The notes beneath the pieces are model-generated. The model was not told the DNA's origin. It saw only the letters and a program-made list of their open reading frames with translations, and did not search any database. A stretch of 64,000 nt of DNA, taken from the NCBI RefSeq assembly GCF_000988205.1, contig NZ_LAYQ01000019.1:1-64000 (forward strand). The letters run 5' to 3'. The position numbers and the translations under genes were made by a program. The DNA is from Corynebacterium minutissimum. Its GTDB lineage: Bacteria > Actinomycetota > Actinomycetes > Mycobacteriales > Mycobacteriaceae. Shown here piece by piece: positions 277-8,633 of the stretch. Position 1 is the first letter of the stretch. Each line of letters begins with the position of its first letter.

Positions 277-351
277 GTGGAGCATAGGAGAATCGAACTC
301 CTGACCTTCTGCTTGCAAAGCAGATGCTCTACCAATTGAGCTAATGCCCCA
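275..351. repeat. 77-bp direct repeat, outer copy (contains tRNA-Ala)
   Basis: Identical over 77 bp to 3916-3992. The identity covers the whole tRNA-Ala gene with 3 bases outside one end and 1 outside the other. The two copies bound the deacetylase/cspB segment. Confidence 0.9.
278..350 (-). tRNA. tRNA-Ala (anticodon UGC), outer copy
   Basis: 73-nt cloverleaf on the minus strand. The acceptor arm is GGGGCAT/ATGCTCC (one G-U) with discriminator A, the D-arm starts AGCTCAATTGG, and the T-loop is GTTCGATTC. The anticodon loop TTTGCAA presents UGC, read as alanine. CCA is not encoded. It is identical to the copy at 3919-3991. Confidence 0.93.
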
Positions 352-3915: not shown

Positions 3916-3992
3916 TTGTGGAGCATAGGAGAATCGAACTCCTGACCTTCTGCTTGCAAAGCAGATGCTCTACCAATTGAGCTAATGCCCCA
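3916..3992. repeat. 77-bp direct repeat, inner copy (contains tRNA-Ala)
   Basis: Identical to 275-351. This copy adjoins tRNA-Ile, the usual corynebacterial arrangement beside gyrA, so it is probably the ancestral copy. Confidence 0.9.
3919..3991 (-). tRNA. tRNA-Ala (anticodon UGC), inner copy
   Basis: Same 73-nt cloverleaf as 278-350, anticodon UGC, no encoded CCA. It lies 9 bp downstream of tRNA-Ile on the same strand and is probably cotranscribed with it. Confidence 0.93.
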
Positions 3993-4000
3993 TTGTTCCG

Positions 4001-4077
4001 TGGTGGGCCTAGCTGGAATCGAACCAGCGACCTCATCGTTATCAGCGATGCGCTCTAACCGACTGAGCTATAGGCCC
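4001..4077 (-). tRNA. tRNA-Ile (anticodon GAU)
   Basis: Minus-strand cloverleaf GGGCCTATAGCTCAG... with acceptor GGGCCTA/TAGGCCC, discriminator A at 4004 and an encoded CCA (4001-4003). The anticodon stem CATCG/CGATG holds loop CTGATAA, anticodon GAU. Confidence 0.95.
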
Positions 4078-4529: not shown

Positions 4530-7117
4530 TTACTCCTCGTCCTTATCGGAGTCCTTGTCTTCGCCCTTTTCCGGCTTGGAGTTCTCTCCAAGCTTGAGGT
4601 GTTCGGGCTTGACGTCCTCGACAGACTTTTCACCCTTGGCAACTGCCTGGGCGTCCTCCTCACCGTCGTCTTCAACATTGCGGTCGATAGCCAGCAGCTC
4701 GACGTCGTCGGCCAGGTTGACCAAGCGCACGCCCATGGTGGCGCGGGAGCTCGGGCGAATCTGGTTGACTTCGGTGCGGACAACACCACCTGCAGAGGTG
4801 ATGGCAAAGATCTCGTCGTCCTCGTCGACGGCGATTGCTGCAATGAGCTTGCCGCGCTTTGGCGTGTACTTGAAGGTCATCACGCCGAGGCCACCGCGGC
4901 CCTGCGGGGTGTACTCCTCAATGGCGGTGCGCTTGCCGTAACCGCCGGAGGTAGCTACCAGGAGGAACTGGCCGTCATTGACCACGGACATGGACAGCAG
5001 CTGGTCATCGCCGCGGAAGCGCATGCCCTTCACGCCGGCGGTAGCGCGGCCCATCGGGCGCAGCTGGTCATCGTCCGCGGTGAAGCGGATTGCCTGACCC
5101 TGCTCAGAGGTCAGCAGGATGTCATCGCCCTCGTTGACCAGCTGGGCGCCGATCAGCGCATCGCCCTCGTTGAGGTTGATAGCGATGAGGCCGGCGGAAC
5201 GTGCGGACTCGTAATCGGTCAGTCGGGACTTCTTTACGCGGCCCTGCTGGGTAGCAAGGACCAGGTATGGGGCGTCCTCGTAGGACTGGATCTGAATGAC
5301 CTGAGCGATCTTCTCCTCCGGCTGGAACTCCAGCAGGTTAGCCACGTGCTGGCCACGAGCGGTGCGGCCCGCCTCCGGAAGCTCGTAGGCCTTGAGGCGG
5401 TAGACGCGGCCGAAGTTGGTGAAGAACAGGATCCAATCGTGCGTGGAGCAGACGAAGAAGTTCTTCACAATGTCATCCTGCTTCAGCTCCGCGCCGCGCA
5501 CACCCTTGCCGCCGCGCTTCTGGGCCTTGTAAGCATCGACCTTGGTGCGCTTGGCGTAGCCAGTAGCGGTGATGGTGACCACGACGTTCTCGCGGGCGAT
5601 GAGGTCCTCATCGCTGACGTCGCCGGAGGCGGCAACAATCTGGGTGCGGCGCTCATCACCGTACTTTTCGACGATTTCCTCGAGCTCATCGTGGACGATC
5701 TGACGCTGGCGTTCCTCGCGGGCCAGGATGTCCTTGAGGTCCGCGATGATCTCCTCGATCTCCGCCAACTCATCAATGATCTTCTGGCGCTCCAGGGCGG
5801 CCAGACGGCGCAGCTGCATAGCGAGGATGGCATCTGCCTGGACATCGTCGACGTCGAGAAGCGCCTTCAGGCCCTCACGTGCCTCATCAACCGTGGTGGA
5901 ACGGCGGATGAGCGCGATGACCTCATCGAGCATGTCGAGTGCCTTGACCAGACCGCGCAGAATGTGGGCGCGCTTTTCGGCCTCATCGAGGCGGAACTGG
6001 GTACGGCGGACGATGACCTCGATCTGGTGGGCCACGTAGTAGCTCAGCATCTGATCCAGGCGCAGGGTGCGCGGCACGCCATCCACGATGGAAAGCATGT
6101 TGGCGCCGAAGGAGGTTTGCAGCTGGGAGTGCTTGTACAGGTTATTAAGGACAACGCGTGCTACGGCGTCTCGCTTGAGGGTGACCACGATGCGCATACC
6201 CACGCGGTCGGAGGACTCGTCCTCGATCTTGGCGATTCCGGCGATCTTGCCGTTGACCACAGACTCCGCGATATTGGAGATCATGTTGTCCGGGTTGACC
6301 TGGTAGGGCAGCTCAGTGATAACGATGGTCTGGCGGTTGCCCACCTCCTCAATGGAGGTCACGCCGCGCATACGGATGGAGCCGCGGCCGGTGGTGTAGG
6401 CATCCTTGATGCCCTGGTCACCCACGATGAGACCCGCGGTGGGGAAATCCGGGCCCTTGACGCGCTCCATACAAGCAGCCAAGGCTTCTTCCTCGGAAGC
6501 ATTCGGGTTATCCAGCAACCAGTAGATGGCCTCCGCCAACTCGTTCAGGTTGTGCGGCGGAATGTTGGTGGCCATACCGACAGCGATACCGCCGGAGCCG
6601 TTCATCAGCAGGTTCGGAACGCGGGAGGCAGAATCGTCGGTTCCTGCGTCTTGCCGTCGTAGTTCGGCGCGAAGTCGACGGTGTTTTCGCGGATATCGCG
6701 GACCATCTCCATGGCCAGCGGCGTCATGCGGCACTCGGTGTAACGCATAGCTGCCGGGCCGTCATTACCGCGGGAGCCGAAGTTACCTTGGCCGTCGACC
6801 AGCGGGTAGCGCATGTTCCACGGCTGGGCCAAGCGCACGAGGGTGTCGTAGATGGCGGAGTCACCGTGCGGGTGGAACTGACCCATCGTGTCCGAGACCG
6901 GGCGGGCGGACTTTACGTAGCCACGGTCCGGGCGGTAGCCGGAGTCATACATGGCGTAGAGGATGCGGCGGTGAACCGGCTTGAGGCCGTCGCGCACCTC
7001 CGGCAGGGCGCGGCCGACGATGACGGACATGGCGTAGTCGATGTAGCTCGACTCCATCTCCTCATTAATGTCAATTGGTTGGATGCGATCGAAGAGATCA
7101 CCGTTGTTATCACTCAT
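4530..7117 (-). CDS. gyrA: DNA gyrase subunit A, with one-base frameshift near 6630
   Basis: Restoring one base gives 862 aa, the normal length. The N-terminal part (7117 to about 6630) holds the breakage-reunion domain: catalytic tyrosine in AAMRYTE (Y126) and the quinolone-determining stretch [10 protein letters not shown] with susceptible-type S87 and D91. The rest (about 6630 to 4530) resumes at [13 protein letters not shown] and includes the coiled coil and the six-bladed C-terminal beta-pinwheel with the GyrA box QRGGKG. The break is CTGCCTCCCGCG on the minus strand, where L-P-S-R needs one more base. GyrA pairs with GyrB to introduce negative supercoils and is essential, so the lesion is probably a sequence error. 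A TAAGAT hexamer 8 nt before ATG suggests a very short leader. Confidence 0.93.
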
Positions 7118-7169: not shown

Positions 7170-7188
7170 TGGTATCATGGTGATACCA
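7170..7188. promoter_or_regulatory. operator palindrome and -10 element of the RHH/Doc-like pair
   Basis: TGGTATCA-tgg-TGATACCA is a perfect inverted repeat. A TACCAT hexamer (7184-7189) overlaps its right arm and lies 7 nt before the ATG at 7197, the spacing of a leaderless promoter. A repressor bound here would block the start, as expected for autoregulation by a ribbon-helix-helix protein. Confidence 0.65.
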
Positions 7189-7196
7189 TTTCTACC

Positions 7197-7418
7197 ATGG
7201 CTATGACACTGCGCCTGACCCCAGAGCAAGACCACGCGCTGACCTTGTTGGCTTCTGCGCAAGGTACTTCCAAGCACGAGGCGGTAGTCCGCGCCGTCGT
7301 CGCGGCGGCCGCACGGACCTTGTCGGATGCTGAGGTACAGGACACCGCACGCCGGCTGCTGCCCGGGCGCTCAGAATTGGAGGCAGAGATCCGCCGGGCA
7401 CGAGGGGTGCGTCAGTGA
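7197..7418 (+). CDS. ribbon-helix-helix (CopG-type) antitoxin-like protein
   Basis: 73 aa. The N-terminus MAMTLRLTPEQDHALTLLA has the short beta-strand plus helix of RHH DNA-binding proteins, and GTSKHEAVVRAVV forms the second helix. The charged tail (RRLLPGRSELEAEIRRARG) would be the partner-binding region. The start is ATG 7197 (ATG 7203 is possible); there is no ribosome site, consistent with a leaderless mRNA. It overlaps the next gene by GTGA and sits behind a perfect palindrome, both typical of type II toxin-antitoxin modules. It lies divergently from gyrA. DNA binding is inferred from the fold. Confidence 0.65.
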   Translation: MAMTLRLTPEQDHALTLLASAQGTSKHEAVVRAVVAAAARTLSDAEVQDTARRLLPGRSELEAEIRRARGVRQ

Positions 7419-7675
7419 ATGTTGAGCAACTGGTTGTAGTCGCGCGGGAGTTTTGCCGGGTATATCGCGTGCGGATAACCAACTTCGCCGCCCTAGCCGC
7501 TGCCGCCGCCGCGAGCACGGCGAGCATCGAGGGAATTGCCGTGCACGGCAGCCGCGCTGCGGCGGGACAGTCGCTGGAGACAGTGTTGCGCTCAGTGCCC
7601 GCGCTGAGTGGAAAGAATGAAGAATTCGCGCGATTGTGCGCGCAGGTCTATCTTTCTGTTGCAGAAGTTATGTAA
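7415..7675 (+). CDS. small Doc/Fic-like protein lacking the catalytic motif
   Basis: 86 aa, starting with GTG that overlaps the RHH stop codon by 4 bases. The helical pattern (ITNFAALAAAAAASTASIEG ... SLETVLRSVPALSGKNEEFA) lines up by eye with Doc toxins, where HPFxDGNKR follows such helices. Here residues 61-70 read VPALSGKNEE, so the catalytic His and Arg are missing. The protein is also shorter than Doc (about 125 aa). It could be a decayed toxin, a toxin of another mechanism, or an unrelated small partner. The Fic/Doc link is my inference from the pattern, not a firm family call. Confidence 0.45.
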   Translation: MNVEQLVVVAREFCRVYRVRITNFAALAAAAAASTASIEGIAVHGSRAAAGQSLETVLRSVPALSGKNEEFARLCAQVYLSVAEVM

Positions 7676-7729: not shown

Positions 7730-8176
7730 ATGTCCTCTGTGTCTTTGAAGAAGTTCCTCGCCGCCGGCGTTGTGGCCACCACCCTCACCACTGCCATCGC
7801 CCCCGCCGCGAGCGCTGAGACCGCAGACGATTCCTGGAAGAACAACGTCAACCCCGACTTCCAGCAGGGCGAAGGTGGTTCCTCCCTGACTGGCTCCACG
7901 CCCATCGACATGACGCTCATCATCGGCGGTTCCATCGCTGCTGCGATGGCTCTGCTCAAGCTCGTAGTAGATAATGTCCCGGCACTGCGCGCCCAGGCAG
8001 ATGAATTCGCCGCGCAAATCGGCATGGCAGGCTCCTCCGGTTCCTCCGAGCACAACCGCCTCTACGAGGGTGGTCTCGACTTCGACCTCGAGCGCCTGGC
8101 CCGCACCAATGGTTTCCCGGAGATTGCTGACCAGCTTGCCACGCTCAAGGCAGGCTCCAGCGCCCCAGCACAGTAA
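7730..8176 (+). CDS. secreted/membrane-anchored corynebacterial protein of unknown function
   Basis: 148 aa. Signal peptide residues 1-29 (KKFLAAGVVATTLTTAI...ASA-ET), a short Gly/Ser-rich segment, then a hydrophobic segment at about 61-82 (MTLIIGGSIAAAMALLKLVV) and a hydrophilic Ser-rich tail. The RBS GAAAGGAA lies before ATG. I do not recognise a domain. It is followed 10 bp later by a DUF6918 gene on the same strand, so the two are probably cotranscribed. It may be an envelope protein with one membrane span. Confidence 0.6.
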   Translation: MSSVSLKKFLAAGVVATTLTTAIAPAASAETADDSWKNNVNPDFQQGEGGSSLTGSTPIDMTLIIGGSIAAAMALLKLVVDNVPALRAQADEFAAQIGMAGSSGSSEHNRLYEGGLDFDLERLARTNGFPEIADQLATLKAGSSAPAQ

Positions 8177-8186
8177 GCTCGCCTGT

Positions 8187-8633
8187 ATGACAAACCTCTC
8201 CCAACTCCTCCAGTCCCCTACCCGCAACGCCGTGGTGGCGGACTTGTCCACAGCAGCAGACGATGCCGTAGCATCCCTCACCGGTATCACCGGCATGGCC
8301 TTCAAGGGCGCCTTGGTGGCCGCAAAGAAGGCGGACTCCAAGGTTCTGTCGAAGGGAATCAACCAGATGCTGCCGGAGCTGCTCAACAGCCTGGATTCCT
8401 ATTGGAAGGAATTTGAGGGCTCAGAGCAGTCCGATTTTGGCACCTACCTCGATGGGCGCAGCGGCGAAGTTACCGAAGCCATCATGGCTGCGGCTGATAA
8501 GGCCGCCAAGGACATTAAGGCCCCCGGCATCGCGCGGACCTACAAGTCGCTGCGCGGCAAGGCCTCGTCCATTGTGGAGCCTCACGTGGCGACCATCGGC
8601 CGCGTTCTGCAGCGCCACATGGATACCGTATAA
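8187..8633 (+). CDS. DUF6918 family protein
   Basis: 148 aa, starting at ATG 8187 (the longer open frame runs into the preceding gene). It is helical, with the pattern PTRNAVVADLSTAADDAV ... GRSGEVTEAIMAAADKAAKD ... SLRGKASSIV that I associate with the actinobacterial DUF6918 family. There is no signal peptide, so it is probably cytoplasmic. Function unknown. Its downstream side faces gyrB across a shared terminator. Confidence 0.6.
   Translation: MTNLSQLLQSPTRNAVVADLSTAADDAVASLTGITGMAFKGALVAAKKADSKVLSKGINQMLPELLNSLDSYWKEFEGSEQSDFGTYLDGRSGEVTEAIMAAADKAAKDIKAPGIARTYKSLRGKASSIVEPHVATIGRVLQRHMDTV

What the first reader, a model, noticed from the sequence alone, without database searches (positions are those of the whole stretch)
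7170..7675. RHH/Doc-like pair with operator, a possible atypical toxin-antitoxin module beside gyrA
A perfect 8+8 palindrome overlaps a TACCAT -10 and is followed by a leaderless RHH gene that overlaps an 86-aa partner by GTGA. The partner has the helix pattern I associate with Doc but lacks the HPFxxGNKR catalytic residues (VPALSGKNEE at 61-70). It could be a decayed Doc kept only for regulation, or a new small toxin.
Basis: inference. Interest (0 to 1): 0.7.

Follow-up and report, generated by a model that had tools for sequence, protein, structure and literature searches.

The report
Dead Doc toxin kept beside gyrA
Most of the Corynebacterium genomes sampled carry, usually beside the gene for DNA gyrase, a small repressor and a Doc-like toxin that has lost its catalytic residues, a sign that an old toxin-antitoxin pair was kept for a regulatory job rather than for poisoning.

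Summary
The window (a Corynebacterium genome) holds a 73-aa ribbon-helix-helix (RHH) gene, a 4-nt-overlapping 86-aa partner, and a perfect 8+3+8 palindrome upstream, beside gyrA. Both gene profiles hit 162 of 201 Corynebacterium genomes; gyrA lies divergently within 300 nt in 104 of 110 loci read. The partner is a Doc homologue: profile comparison with 14 canonical Docs gives E 3.7e-11, and a sister model aligns with P1 Doc over 86 residues at 2.2 A. Its Fic motif is dead: none of 170 distinct sequences keeps H + D/E + R, while the motif Asn is kept in 168. Close pairs show purifying selection (median dN/dS 0.107). The 'palindrome' is two adjacent 8-bp sites, TGRTAYCA, at 11-bp pitch, in any orientation, with one exact copy in the window's genome. 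Catalytically complete RHH-Doc modules of Mycolicibacterium, Rhodococcus, Amycolatopsis and, sporadically, Corynebacterium use the same or a closely similar operator. Best reading: a former RHH-Doc toxin-antitoxin module, fixed beside gyrA, whose inactive Doc now serves its repressor as co-repressor. What it controls beyond itself is not shown; shielding against active RHH-Doc modules or tuning gyrA remain open.

The parts
7170..7177 (+). operator subsite 1, TGGTATCA (8-bp quasi-palindrome TGRTAYCA, proposed site of one RHH dimer)
7181..7188 (+). operator subsite 2, TGATACCA, 11 bp from subsite 1; overlaps the TACCAT -10 of the RHH gene
7184..7189 (+). TACCAT, candidate -10 of a leaderless RHH transcript (inferred)
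   Evidence: TANNNT between -18 and -6 in 66 of 110 relatives, in 60 of them only at -13 or only at -12, none in 44
7197..7418 (+). RHH repressor/antitoxin gene, 73 aa
   Evidence: (weak TacA1 and RHH_1 hits, both below Pfam cut-offs)
7415..7675 (+). Doc-fold partner without Fic catalytic residues, 86 aa, GTG start overlapping the RHH stop
7598..7624 (+). remnant of the Fic motif: PALSGKNEE (residues 62-70) where canonical Doc has HALVDGNKR
4530..7117 (-). gyrA, divergent neighbour, start 79 nt from the RHH start; TAAGAT candidate -10 at -14 from its ATG; its frame is interrupted in this assembly

Best explanation
The pair is the fixed, vertically inherited descendant of an RHH-Doc type II toxin-antitoxin module. 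RHH dimers bind two adjacent 8-bp sites (TGRTAYCA, 11-bp pitch) over the core promoter of their own leaderless operon and repress it. The partner keeps the Doc fold but not the Fic catalytic residues or the C-terminal part of Doc; it binds the C-terminal helix of RHH and acts as a non-catalytic co-repressor (ratio sensor), as Doc does for Phd. Shown by comparison: homology, loss of the motif, operator architecture, co-occurrence, selection. Inferred: vertical descent (from conserved position; no tree was made), binding, repression, co-repression, absence of toxicity.
For: Partner profile hits 165/201 and RHH profile 164/201 Corynebacterium genomes; both 162, partner only 3 (E 0.004-0.009), RHH only 2, neither 34. 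RHH before the partner in 110/110 loci read and gyrA divergent within 300 nt in 104/110. Partner profile hits 16 non-Corynebacterium genomes at E 2e-6 to 4e-3; the nine read are canonical Docs. The Doc profile finds partners down to E 9e-10; hhalign probability 97.2, E 3.7e-11 over 88 columns. AF2 of the C. marambiense partner (pLDDT 98, no canonical Doc in its alignment): best Foldseek rows are P1 Doc (TMq 0.80, prob 0.98, but E 0.48), VIA Z 10.0, rmsd 2.2, 86 aligned to Doc 1-89, Fic/Doc entries filling ranks 1-12. Fic motif in 170 distinct partners: H 3, R 0, all three catalytic residues 0, Asn 168. dN/dS median 0.107 in 20 usable of 23 close pairs. Operator in 99/110 loci, starting at -27/-26 in 68 of 99; 53 of 56 exact sites in 201 genomes lie at this locus, reversed control 0. 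Catalytically complete RHH-Doc modules use the same operator. Doc is a known co-repressor or derepressor of phd-doc (PMC4803016, passages).
Against: No binding, transcription or toxicity data. The window partner's own model had no significant Foldseek match and its best second-look match was a Fic protein at only Z 4.8; the Doc match comes from a sister protein, its Foldseek E-value is not significant, and the tool warns that Z under about 13 can be a common arrangement for helical proteins. 11 of 110 loci score below 14/16 for the operator. Three of 110 partner frames have no usual start codon at the expected place. A module that regulates only itself has no evident benefit, so an output is missing from this account.
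Confidence: 0.58

Rival explanations
1. Anti-addiction guardian: the chromosomal RHH, still carrying operator specificity and a toxin-binding tail, represses and neutralises active RHH-Doc modules that enter the cell; the inactive partner only keeps the repressor correctly regulated.
For: Docs matching the canonical profile occur in 45 of 201 Corynebacterium genomes; of 30 such loci read, 16 have an RHH gene upstream, 14 of these 16 with an intact H...D.N.R motif. An operator-like pair at 11-bp pitch scoring at least 14/16 lies within 480 nt upstream in 9 of 30 (position not constrained). Genome G113 has the dead pair and an active-type RHH-Doc with an exact operator match. A Tsukamurella plasmid carries RHH-Doc. 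The RHH C-terminus fits a tail pattern of active antitoxins in 79 of 110 (pattern made after the fact).
Against: Active RHHs in Corynebacterium are distant (profile E about 6e-7 to 2e-12 in single-locus searches) and most of the sites listed are of TGGTACC type, so cross-talk is unproven. The window RHH finds no plasmid match at E 1e-4; a mycobacterial relative finds none in plasmids or phages at 1e-4 and one plasmid at E 2e-3.
Confidence: 0.2
2. gyrA regulator: the complex at the shared intergenic region tunes divergent gyrA transcription and so couples supercoiling to the ratio of the two proteins.
For: gyrA is divergent within 300 nt in 104 of 110 loci; operator 53-71 nt upstream of the gyrA ATG in the window.
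Against: The operator keeps its distance to the RHH start (-27/-26 in 68 of 99) but not to gyrA (RHH-gyrA spacing 33 to 249 nt among the loci within 300 nt, some gyrA starts extrapolated); in the window it lies upstream of the inferred gyrA -35 region (inference). In 20 genomes, 17 of them with neither profile hit and 3 with only a weak partner hit, gyrA stands without RHH, partner or operator nearby.
Confidence: 0.12
3. The partner is still a toxin, by binding a target without catalysis or by new chemistry with the conserved Asn.
For: Motif Asn conserved in 168 of 170 and Leu in 167 of 170; purifying selection.
Against: The columns of the catalytic His, acidic residue and Arg vary freely; the part of Doc after about residue 89 is missing.
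Confidence: 0.07
4. Non-functional relic on its way out.
For: No hit to either profile in 34 of 201 genomes; one named partner is truncated in the frame read (L242).
Against: Median dN/dS 0.107 (partner) and 0.087 (RHH); uninterrupted frames of 81-104 aa in the 110 loci read, 107 with a usual start codon; operator kept in 99 of 110.
Confidence: 0.03

Closest known systems
Catalytically complete actinobacterial RHH-Doc modules (loci L239 Rhodococcus koreensis, L244 Amycolatopsis, L245 Mycolicibacterium, L251 M. stellerae, L286 Tsukamurella plasmid)
   Same: RHH (MAMTLRL...), 4-nt gene overlap, operator like TGRTAYCA-N3-TGRTAYCA upstream (exact or one mismatch in L239-L251, 14/16 in L286), Doc homologue
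   Different: They keep HxxxDGNKR and the C-terminal part of Doc, and no gyrA was found in the stretches of L239, L244, L245, L249 and L251; L249 (Mycobacterium) has Gln in the His column
P1 Phd-Doc
   Same: Fold (3kh2/3dd7, VIA Z 9.8-10.0 for the sister model); a second protein that can act as co-repressor (PMC4803016, passages)
   Different: Antitoxin of the Phd/YefM type, not RHH (passages); Doc is a catalytic EF-Tu kinase (passages)
MtvTA, inactive plasmid TA of P. aeruginosa
   Same: A TA-like pair without detectable toxicity that works as a regulator (PMC11826091, abstract and passages)
   Different: AbrB/MazE-type antitoxin, plasmid-borne, several target promoters; here an RHH, chromosomal, with exact operator sites almost only at its own locus (53 of 56)
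C. doosanense PanA-Doc
   Same: A Doc in Corynebacterium (PMC10440598, passages)
   Different: Conserved active-site residues, targets translation, and another antitoxin (Panacea domain) (passages)

Membership tests
Fic/Doc catalytic family (PF02661) | Fic motif HPFx[D/E]GN[G/K]R | tested here: not met
   0 of 170 distinct partners have H + D/E + R; R 0, H 3
Fic/Doc catalytic family (PF02661) | Doc fold | tested here: met
   For the C. marambiense partner: P1 Doc, VIA Z 10.0, rmsd 2.2, 86 aligned; Foldseek prob 0.98 but E 0.48. Inconclusive for the window protein's own model
Fic/Doc catalytic family (PF02661) | Score above the Pfam cut-off | tested here: not met
   No Fic hit listed among 44 and 59 partners scanned; three canonical relatives score 41-50 bits against a cut-off of 24
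Fic/Doc catalytic family (PF02661) | Common ancestry with Doc by sequence | tested here: met
   hhalign E 3.7e-11 over 88 columns; hits in both profile directions
Type II toxin-antitoxin module | Two-gene operon, small DNA-binding antitoxin first, overlapping frames | tested here: met
   RHH first in 110/110; chosen partner start at or before the end of the RHH stop in 74/110; operon transcription not tested
Type II toxin-antitoxin module | Operator for the antitoxin at its own promoter | tested here: met
   By sequence only: 99/110 loci; binding not tested
Type II toxin-antitoxin module | Second protein toxic, neutralised by the first | not testable with these tools
   No assay; loss of catalytic residues argues against Doc-type toxicity
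RHH/CopG-like repressor | Score above a Pfam RHH cut-off | tested here: not met
   TacA1 20 vs 21 bits, RHH_1 16 vs 20.5; the RHH label rests on these near hits, the MAMTLRL strand (recalled as RHH-like) and the RHH annotation of a plasmid homologue

The most novel reading that the evidence does not exclude
A widespread Corynebacterium toxin-antitoxin 'vaccine': a disarmed RHH-Doc pair, fixed beside gyrA, whose repressor reads the same operator code as active RHH-Doc modules and intercepts them when they invade, with the dead Doc setting the level of free repressor.
Probability: 0.2. Interest if true: 0.85.

Novelty: new variant of a known kind. Interest (0 to 1): 0.62.

Why it matters
Whether chromosomal toxin-antitoxin loci can persist for functions other than poisoning is debated (my own knowledge). 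Here evolution has done the control experiment: across most of the genus sampled the toxin's catalytic residues are gone, yet both genes, their operator and their place beside gyrA are kept, and the genes evolve under purifying selection, with catalytically complete relatives available for comparison. It makes the co-repressor-only and anti-addiction ideas directly testable in a harmless setting, and it gives an operator code (TGRTAYCA at 11-bp pitch) that finds RHH-Doc modules.

Tried and rejected
Single-sequence and per-member Pfam, NCBIfam and PADLOC scans found no Fic relation; their weak hits (GARP, DUF7259, CARF and others) scatter and were dropped. The profile search of the PDB with the partner gave mainly TALE repeat proteins through repeated weak stretches, rejected as repeat artefacts. 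The RHH profile matched only a designed protein, rejected. Foldseek with the window partner's own model gave nothing significant. A genome-wide regulon was looked for and not found: one exact site in the window genome and one 2-mismatch site elsewhere, while the reversed control pattern also gives 2. Three exact sites away from the dead locus in 201 genomes: one (G113:C10) is an active-type RHH-Doc, two (G064:C2, G073:C49) have no RHH or Doc hit within about 1.5 kb. Plain dN/dS over all pairs with dS 0.1-1.2 gave higher values (medians 0.555 partner, 0.361 RHH); I set it aside because it mixes in distant pairs whose dS is underestimated, and use close, non-overlapping pairs, of which 3 of 23 gave no usable partner estimate and 2 of 23 none for RHH. 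Genomes counted as having both profiles include weak cases such as G148, whose RHH hit (E 1e-5) may belong to an active-type module (L308). Literature searches listed no paper whose title or abstract shows this locus; only an open-access library was searched, and most listed papers were not opened.

Full report
What is there. On the + strand, between gyrA (minus strand) and a 148-aa ORF, lie an operator-like element (7170-7188), an RHH gene (7197-7418) and an 86-aa gene (7415-7675) overlapping it by GTGA. The TACCAT at 7184-7189 sits where the -10 of a leaderless RHH transcript would be (inference); among 110 homologous loci, 60 have TANNNT only at -13 or only at -12, 44 have none between -18 and -6, and 107 lack a Shine-Dalgarno-like string.

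How common it is. A search with the 86-aa protein finds a relative in 144 of 201 Corynebacterium genomes at E 1e-3, one per genome. Profiles raise this to 165 of 201 for the partner (E 0.01) and 164 of 201 for the RHH (E 1e-4). 162 have both, 3 have only a weak partner hit (E 0.004-0.009), 2 have only an RHH hit and 34 have neither (recounted); a few of the 162 are weak, for example G148. I read 110 of the 144 loci (30 returned with it, 80 fetched): RHH precedes the partner in 110, gyrA is divergent upstream in 106 and within 300 nt in 104. In five loci more than 50 nt separate the two genes, up to 961 nt. In 20 genomes (17 with neither hit, 3 with only the weak partner hit) I looked at the gyrA flank and found no RHH, partner or operator. 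Named carriers include C. striatum, C. flavescens, C. macginleyi, C. minutissimum, C. phoceense, C. tuberculostearicum and C. silvaticum.

The partner is a Doc homologue without Fic catalysis. Family libraries miss it. But its profile hits 16 genomes of other genera of the family at E 2e-6 to 4e-3, and the nine of these loci that I read are canonical Docs with DGNKR. A profile of 14 canonical Docs picks up partners down to E 9e-10, in small single-locus sets, and profile-profile comparison gives probability 97.2, E 3.7e-11 over 88 columns. AlphaFold2 models are confident: pLDDT 95.3 for the window protein and 98.0 for the C. marambiense homologue. The first gave no significant Foldseek match and, in the second look, a Fic protein at Z 4.8, rmsd 2.8, 82 aligned. 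The second, folded without any canonical Doc in its alignment, has P1 Doc as its best Foldseek rows (TMq 0.80, prob 0.98, E 0.48, so not significant by E-value) and VIA Z 10.0, rmsd 2.2, 86 aligned to Doc residues 1-89, with Fic/Doc entries filling the first twelve ranks and the first unrelated row at Z 4.3. The partner thus ends where the last third of Doc begins.

The motif. In the alignment PALSGKNEE (62-70) faces HALVDGNKR. In 170 distinct partners (from 185 sequences) the His column holds H in 3, the Arg column holds R in none, the acidic column D or E in 16, and no sequence has H, D/E and R together; the motif Asn is kept in 168 and the Leu in 167. Of five canonical comparators, four have His and one (Mycobacterium L249) has Gln in that column. 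The loss is therefore shared and probably old, not a recent accident. In close pairs the partner evolves under purifying selection: median dN/dS 0.107, maximum 0.315, 20 usable of 23 pairs; RHH median 0.087, 21 usable. An earlier count that mixed in distant pairs gave higher medians, 0.555 and 0.361.

The operator. Relatives show that the palindrome is two 8-bp quasi-palindromes, TGRTAYCA, 11 bp apart. At that pitch 99 of 110 loci score at least 14 of 16; at pitches 8-10 and 12-16 only 0-2 do; none of 2,200 randomised sequences exceeded 13; the same scoring in 81 nt after the RHH stop never exceeds 10. Among the 99, the sites face each other in 36, run in the same direction in 44 (31 + 13) and face away in 5; 14 are mixed or unclear. 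Free flipping of sites at fixed pitch fits one RHH dimer per site better than one protein reading a single palindrome (inference). The first site starts at -27 or -26 from the RHH ATG in 68 of 99. The exact pattern occurs 56 times in 55 of 201 genomes and the reversed control never; 51 sites lie next to an RHH by listed coordinates, and two more by local reading or by the partner's position (G091; G058), so 53 of 56 belong to this locus. The window genome has no other exact site and one 2-mismatch site, no more than the control pattern.

Where it came from. Loci of Rhodococcus koreensis, Amycolatopsis, Mycolicibacterium (two) and Mycobacterium carry an RHH 56-68% identical in the matched stretch, a Doc with the C-terminal part, the same 4-nt overlap, and the same operator: exact in three, one mismatch in two; no gyrA was found in these stretches. 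In 301 genomes of the family the exact operator occurs outside Corynebacterium in four; three of these sites are at a canonical Doc with an RHH-profile hit, one of the RHH hits weak (E 1e-3). Corynebacterium also has Docs matching the canonical profile in 45 of 201 genomes: among 30 such loci read, 16 have an RHH hit upstream (14 of them with an intact motif) and 9 an operator score of at least 14, and one genome (G113) has both the dead pair and an active-type RHH-Doc with an exact operator. A Tsukamurella plasmid also carries an RHH-Doc pair.

Mechanism. Doc co-represses or derepresses phd-doc according to the Phd:Doc ratio (PMC4803016 and PMC3920265, passages), and the solved complexes include DocH66Y bound to the Phd C-terminus (entry title), so this binding does not need the catalytic His (that a His-mutant Doc can also co-repress is recalled, not checked). 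The RHH C-terminus of the dead locus fits a tail pattern like that of active Corynebacterium RHH antitoxins in 79 of 110, against 0 of 110 in residues 1-45, but the pattern was chosen after seeing the sequences and a mycobacterial antitoxin fails it. I therefore infer that the partner is a non-catalytic co-repressor. What the module does for the cell is open: it may guard against active RHH-Doc modules, tune gyrA, or act on an unknown target. The gyrA reading is weakened because the operator keeps its distance to the RHH start but not to gyrA.

Novelty. Inactive toxin-antitoxin pairs acting as regulators have a precedent (MtvTA, PMC11826091, abstract and passages), and Fic proteins with altered active sites are known (PMC5033356, abstract). 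Nine searches of an open-access library listed no paper that shows this locus in title or abstract. A disarmed RHH-Doc fixed beside gyrA in most sampled Corynebacterium genomes, sharing its operator code with active relatives, is a new variant of a known kind.

Noticed in passing
window 6600-6740: The gyrA reading frame is split into two overlapping ORFs (4530-6734 and 6605-7117, minus strand); a close relative is not interrupted there. Probably an assembly or sequencing error in an essential gene.
   Followed up: partly
G113:C10:41039-41643 (L284, L301): A Corynebacterium genome with the dead pair also holds an active-type RHH-Doc (THPFVDGNKR) with an exact tandem operator.
   Followed up: partly
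L287-L316: Docs matching the canonical profile in 45 of 201 Corynebacterium genomes; 16 of 30 loci read have RHH antitoxins, many ending in RLKDA, several with TGGTACC-type operators at the same 11-bp pitch.
   Followed up: partly
L249:3201-3575: The Doc of Mycobacterium sp. M26 has Gln in the catalytic His column (RHQPLVDGNKR), so inactivation may have occurred elsewhere too.
   Followed up: no
G073:C49:18617 and G064:C2:241461: Exact operator matches with no RHH or Doc hit within about 1.5 kb; chance or unknown targets.
   Followed up: partly
window genome G000: Six matches to the Fic family above the Pfam cut-off elsewhere in the genome (C1, C2, C10, C11), apart from the partner studied here.
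   Followed up: no
window 7730-8176 and 7974-8633: Downstream: a 148-aa ORF with a signal-like N-terminus and no Pfam or NCBIfam hit, and an ORF with a strong DUF6918 match (E 8.6e-43).
   Followed up: no
window 277-350, 3918-3991, 4001-4077: Two tRNA-Ala(tgc) genes and one tRNA-Ile(gat) gene on the minus strand near gyrA.
   Followed up: no
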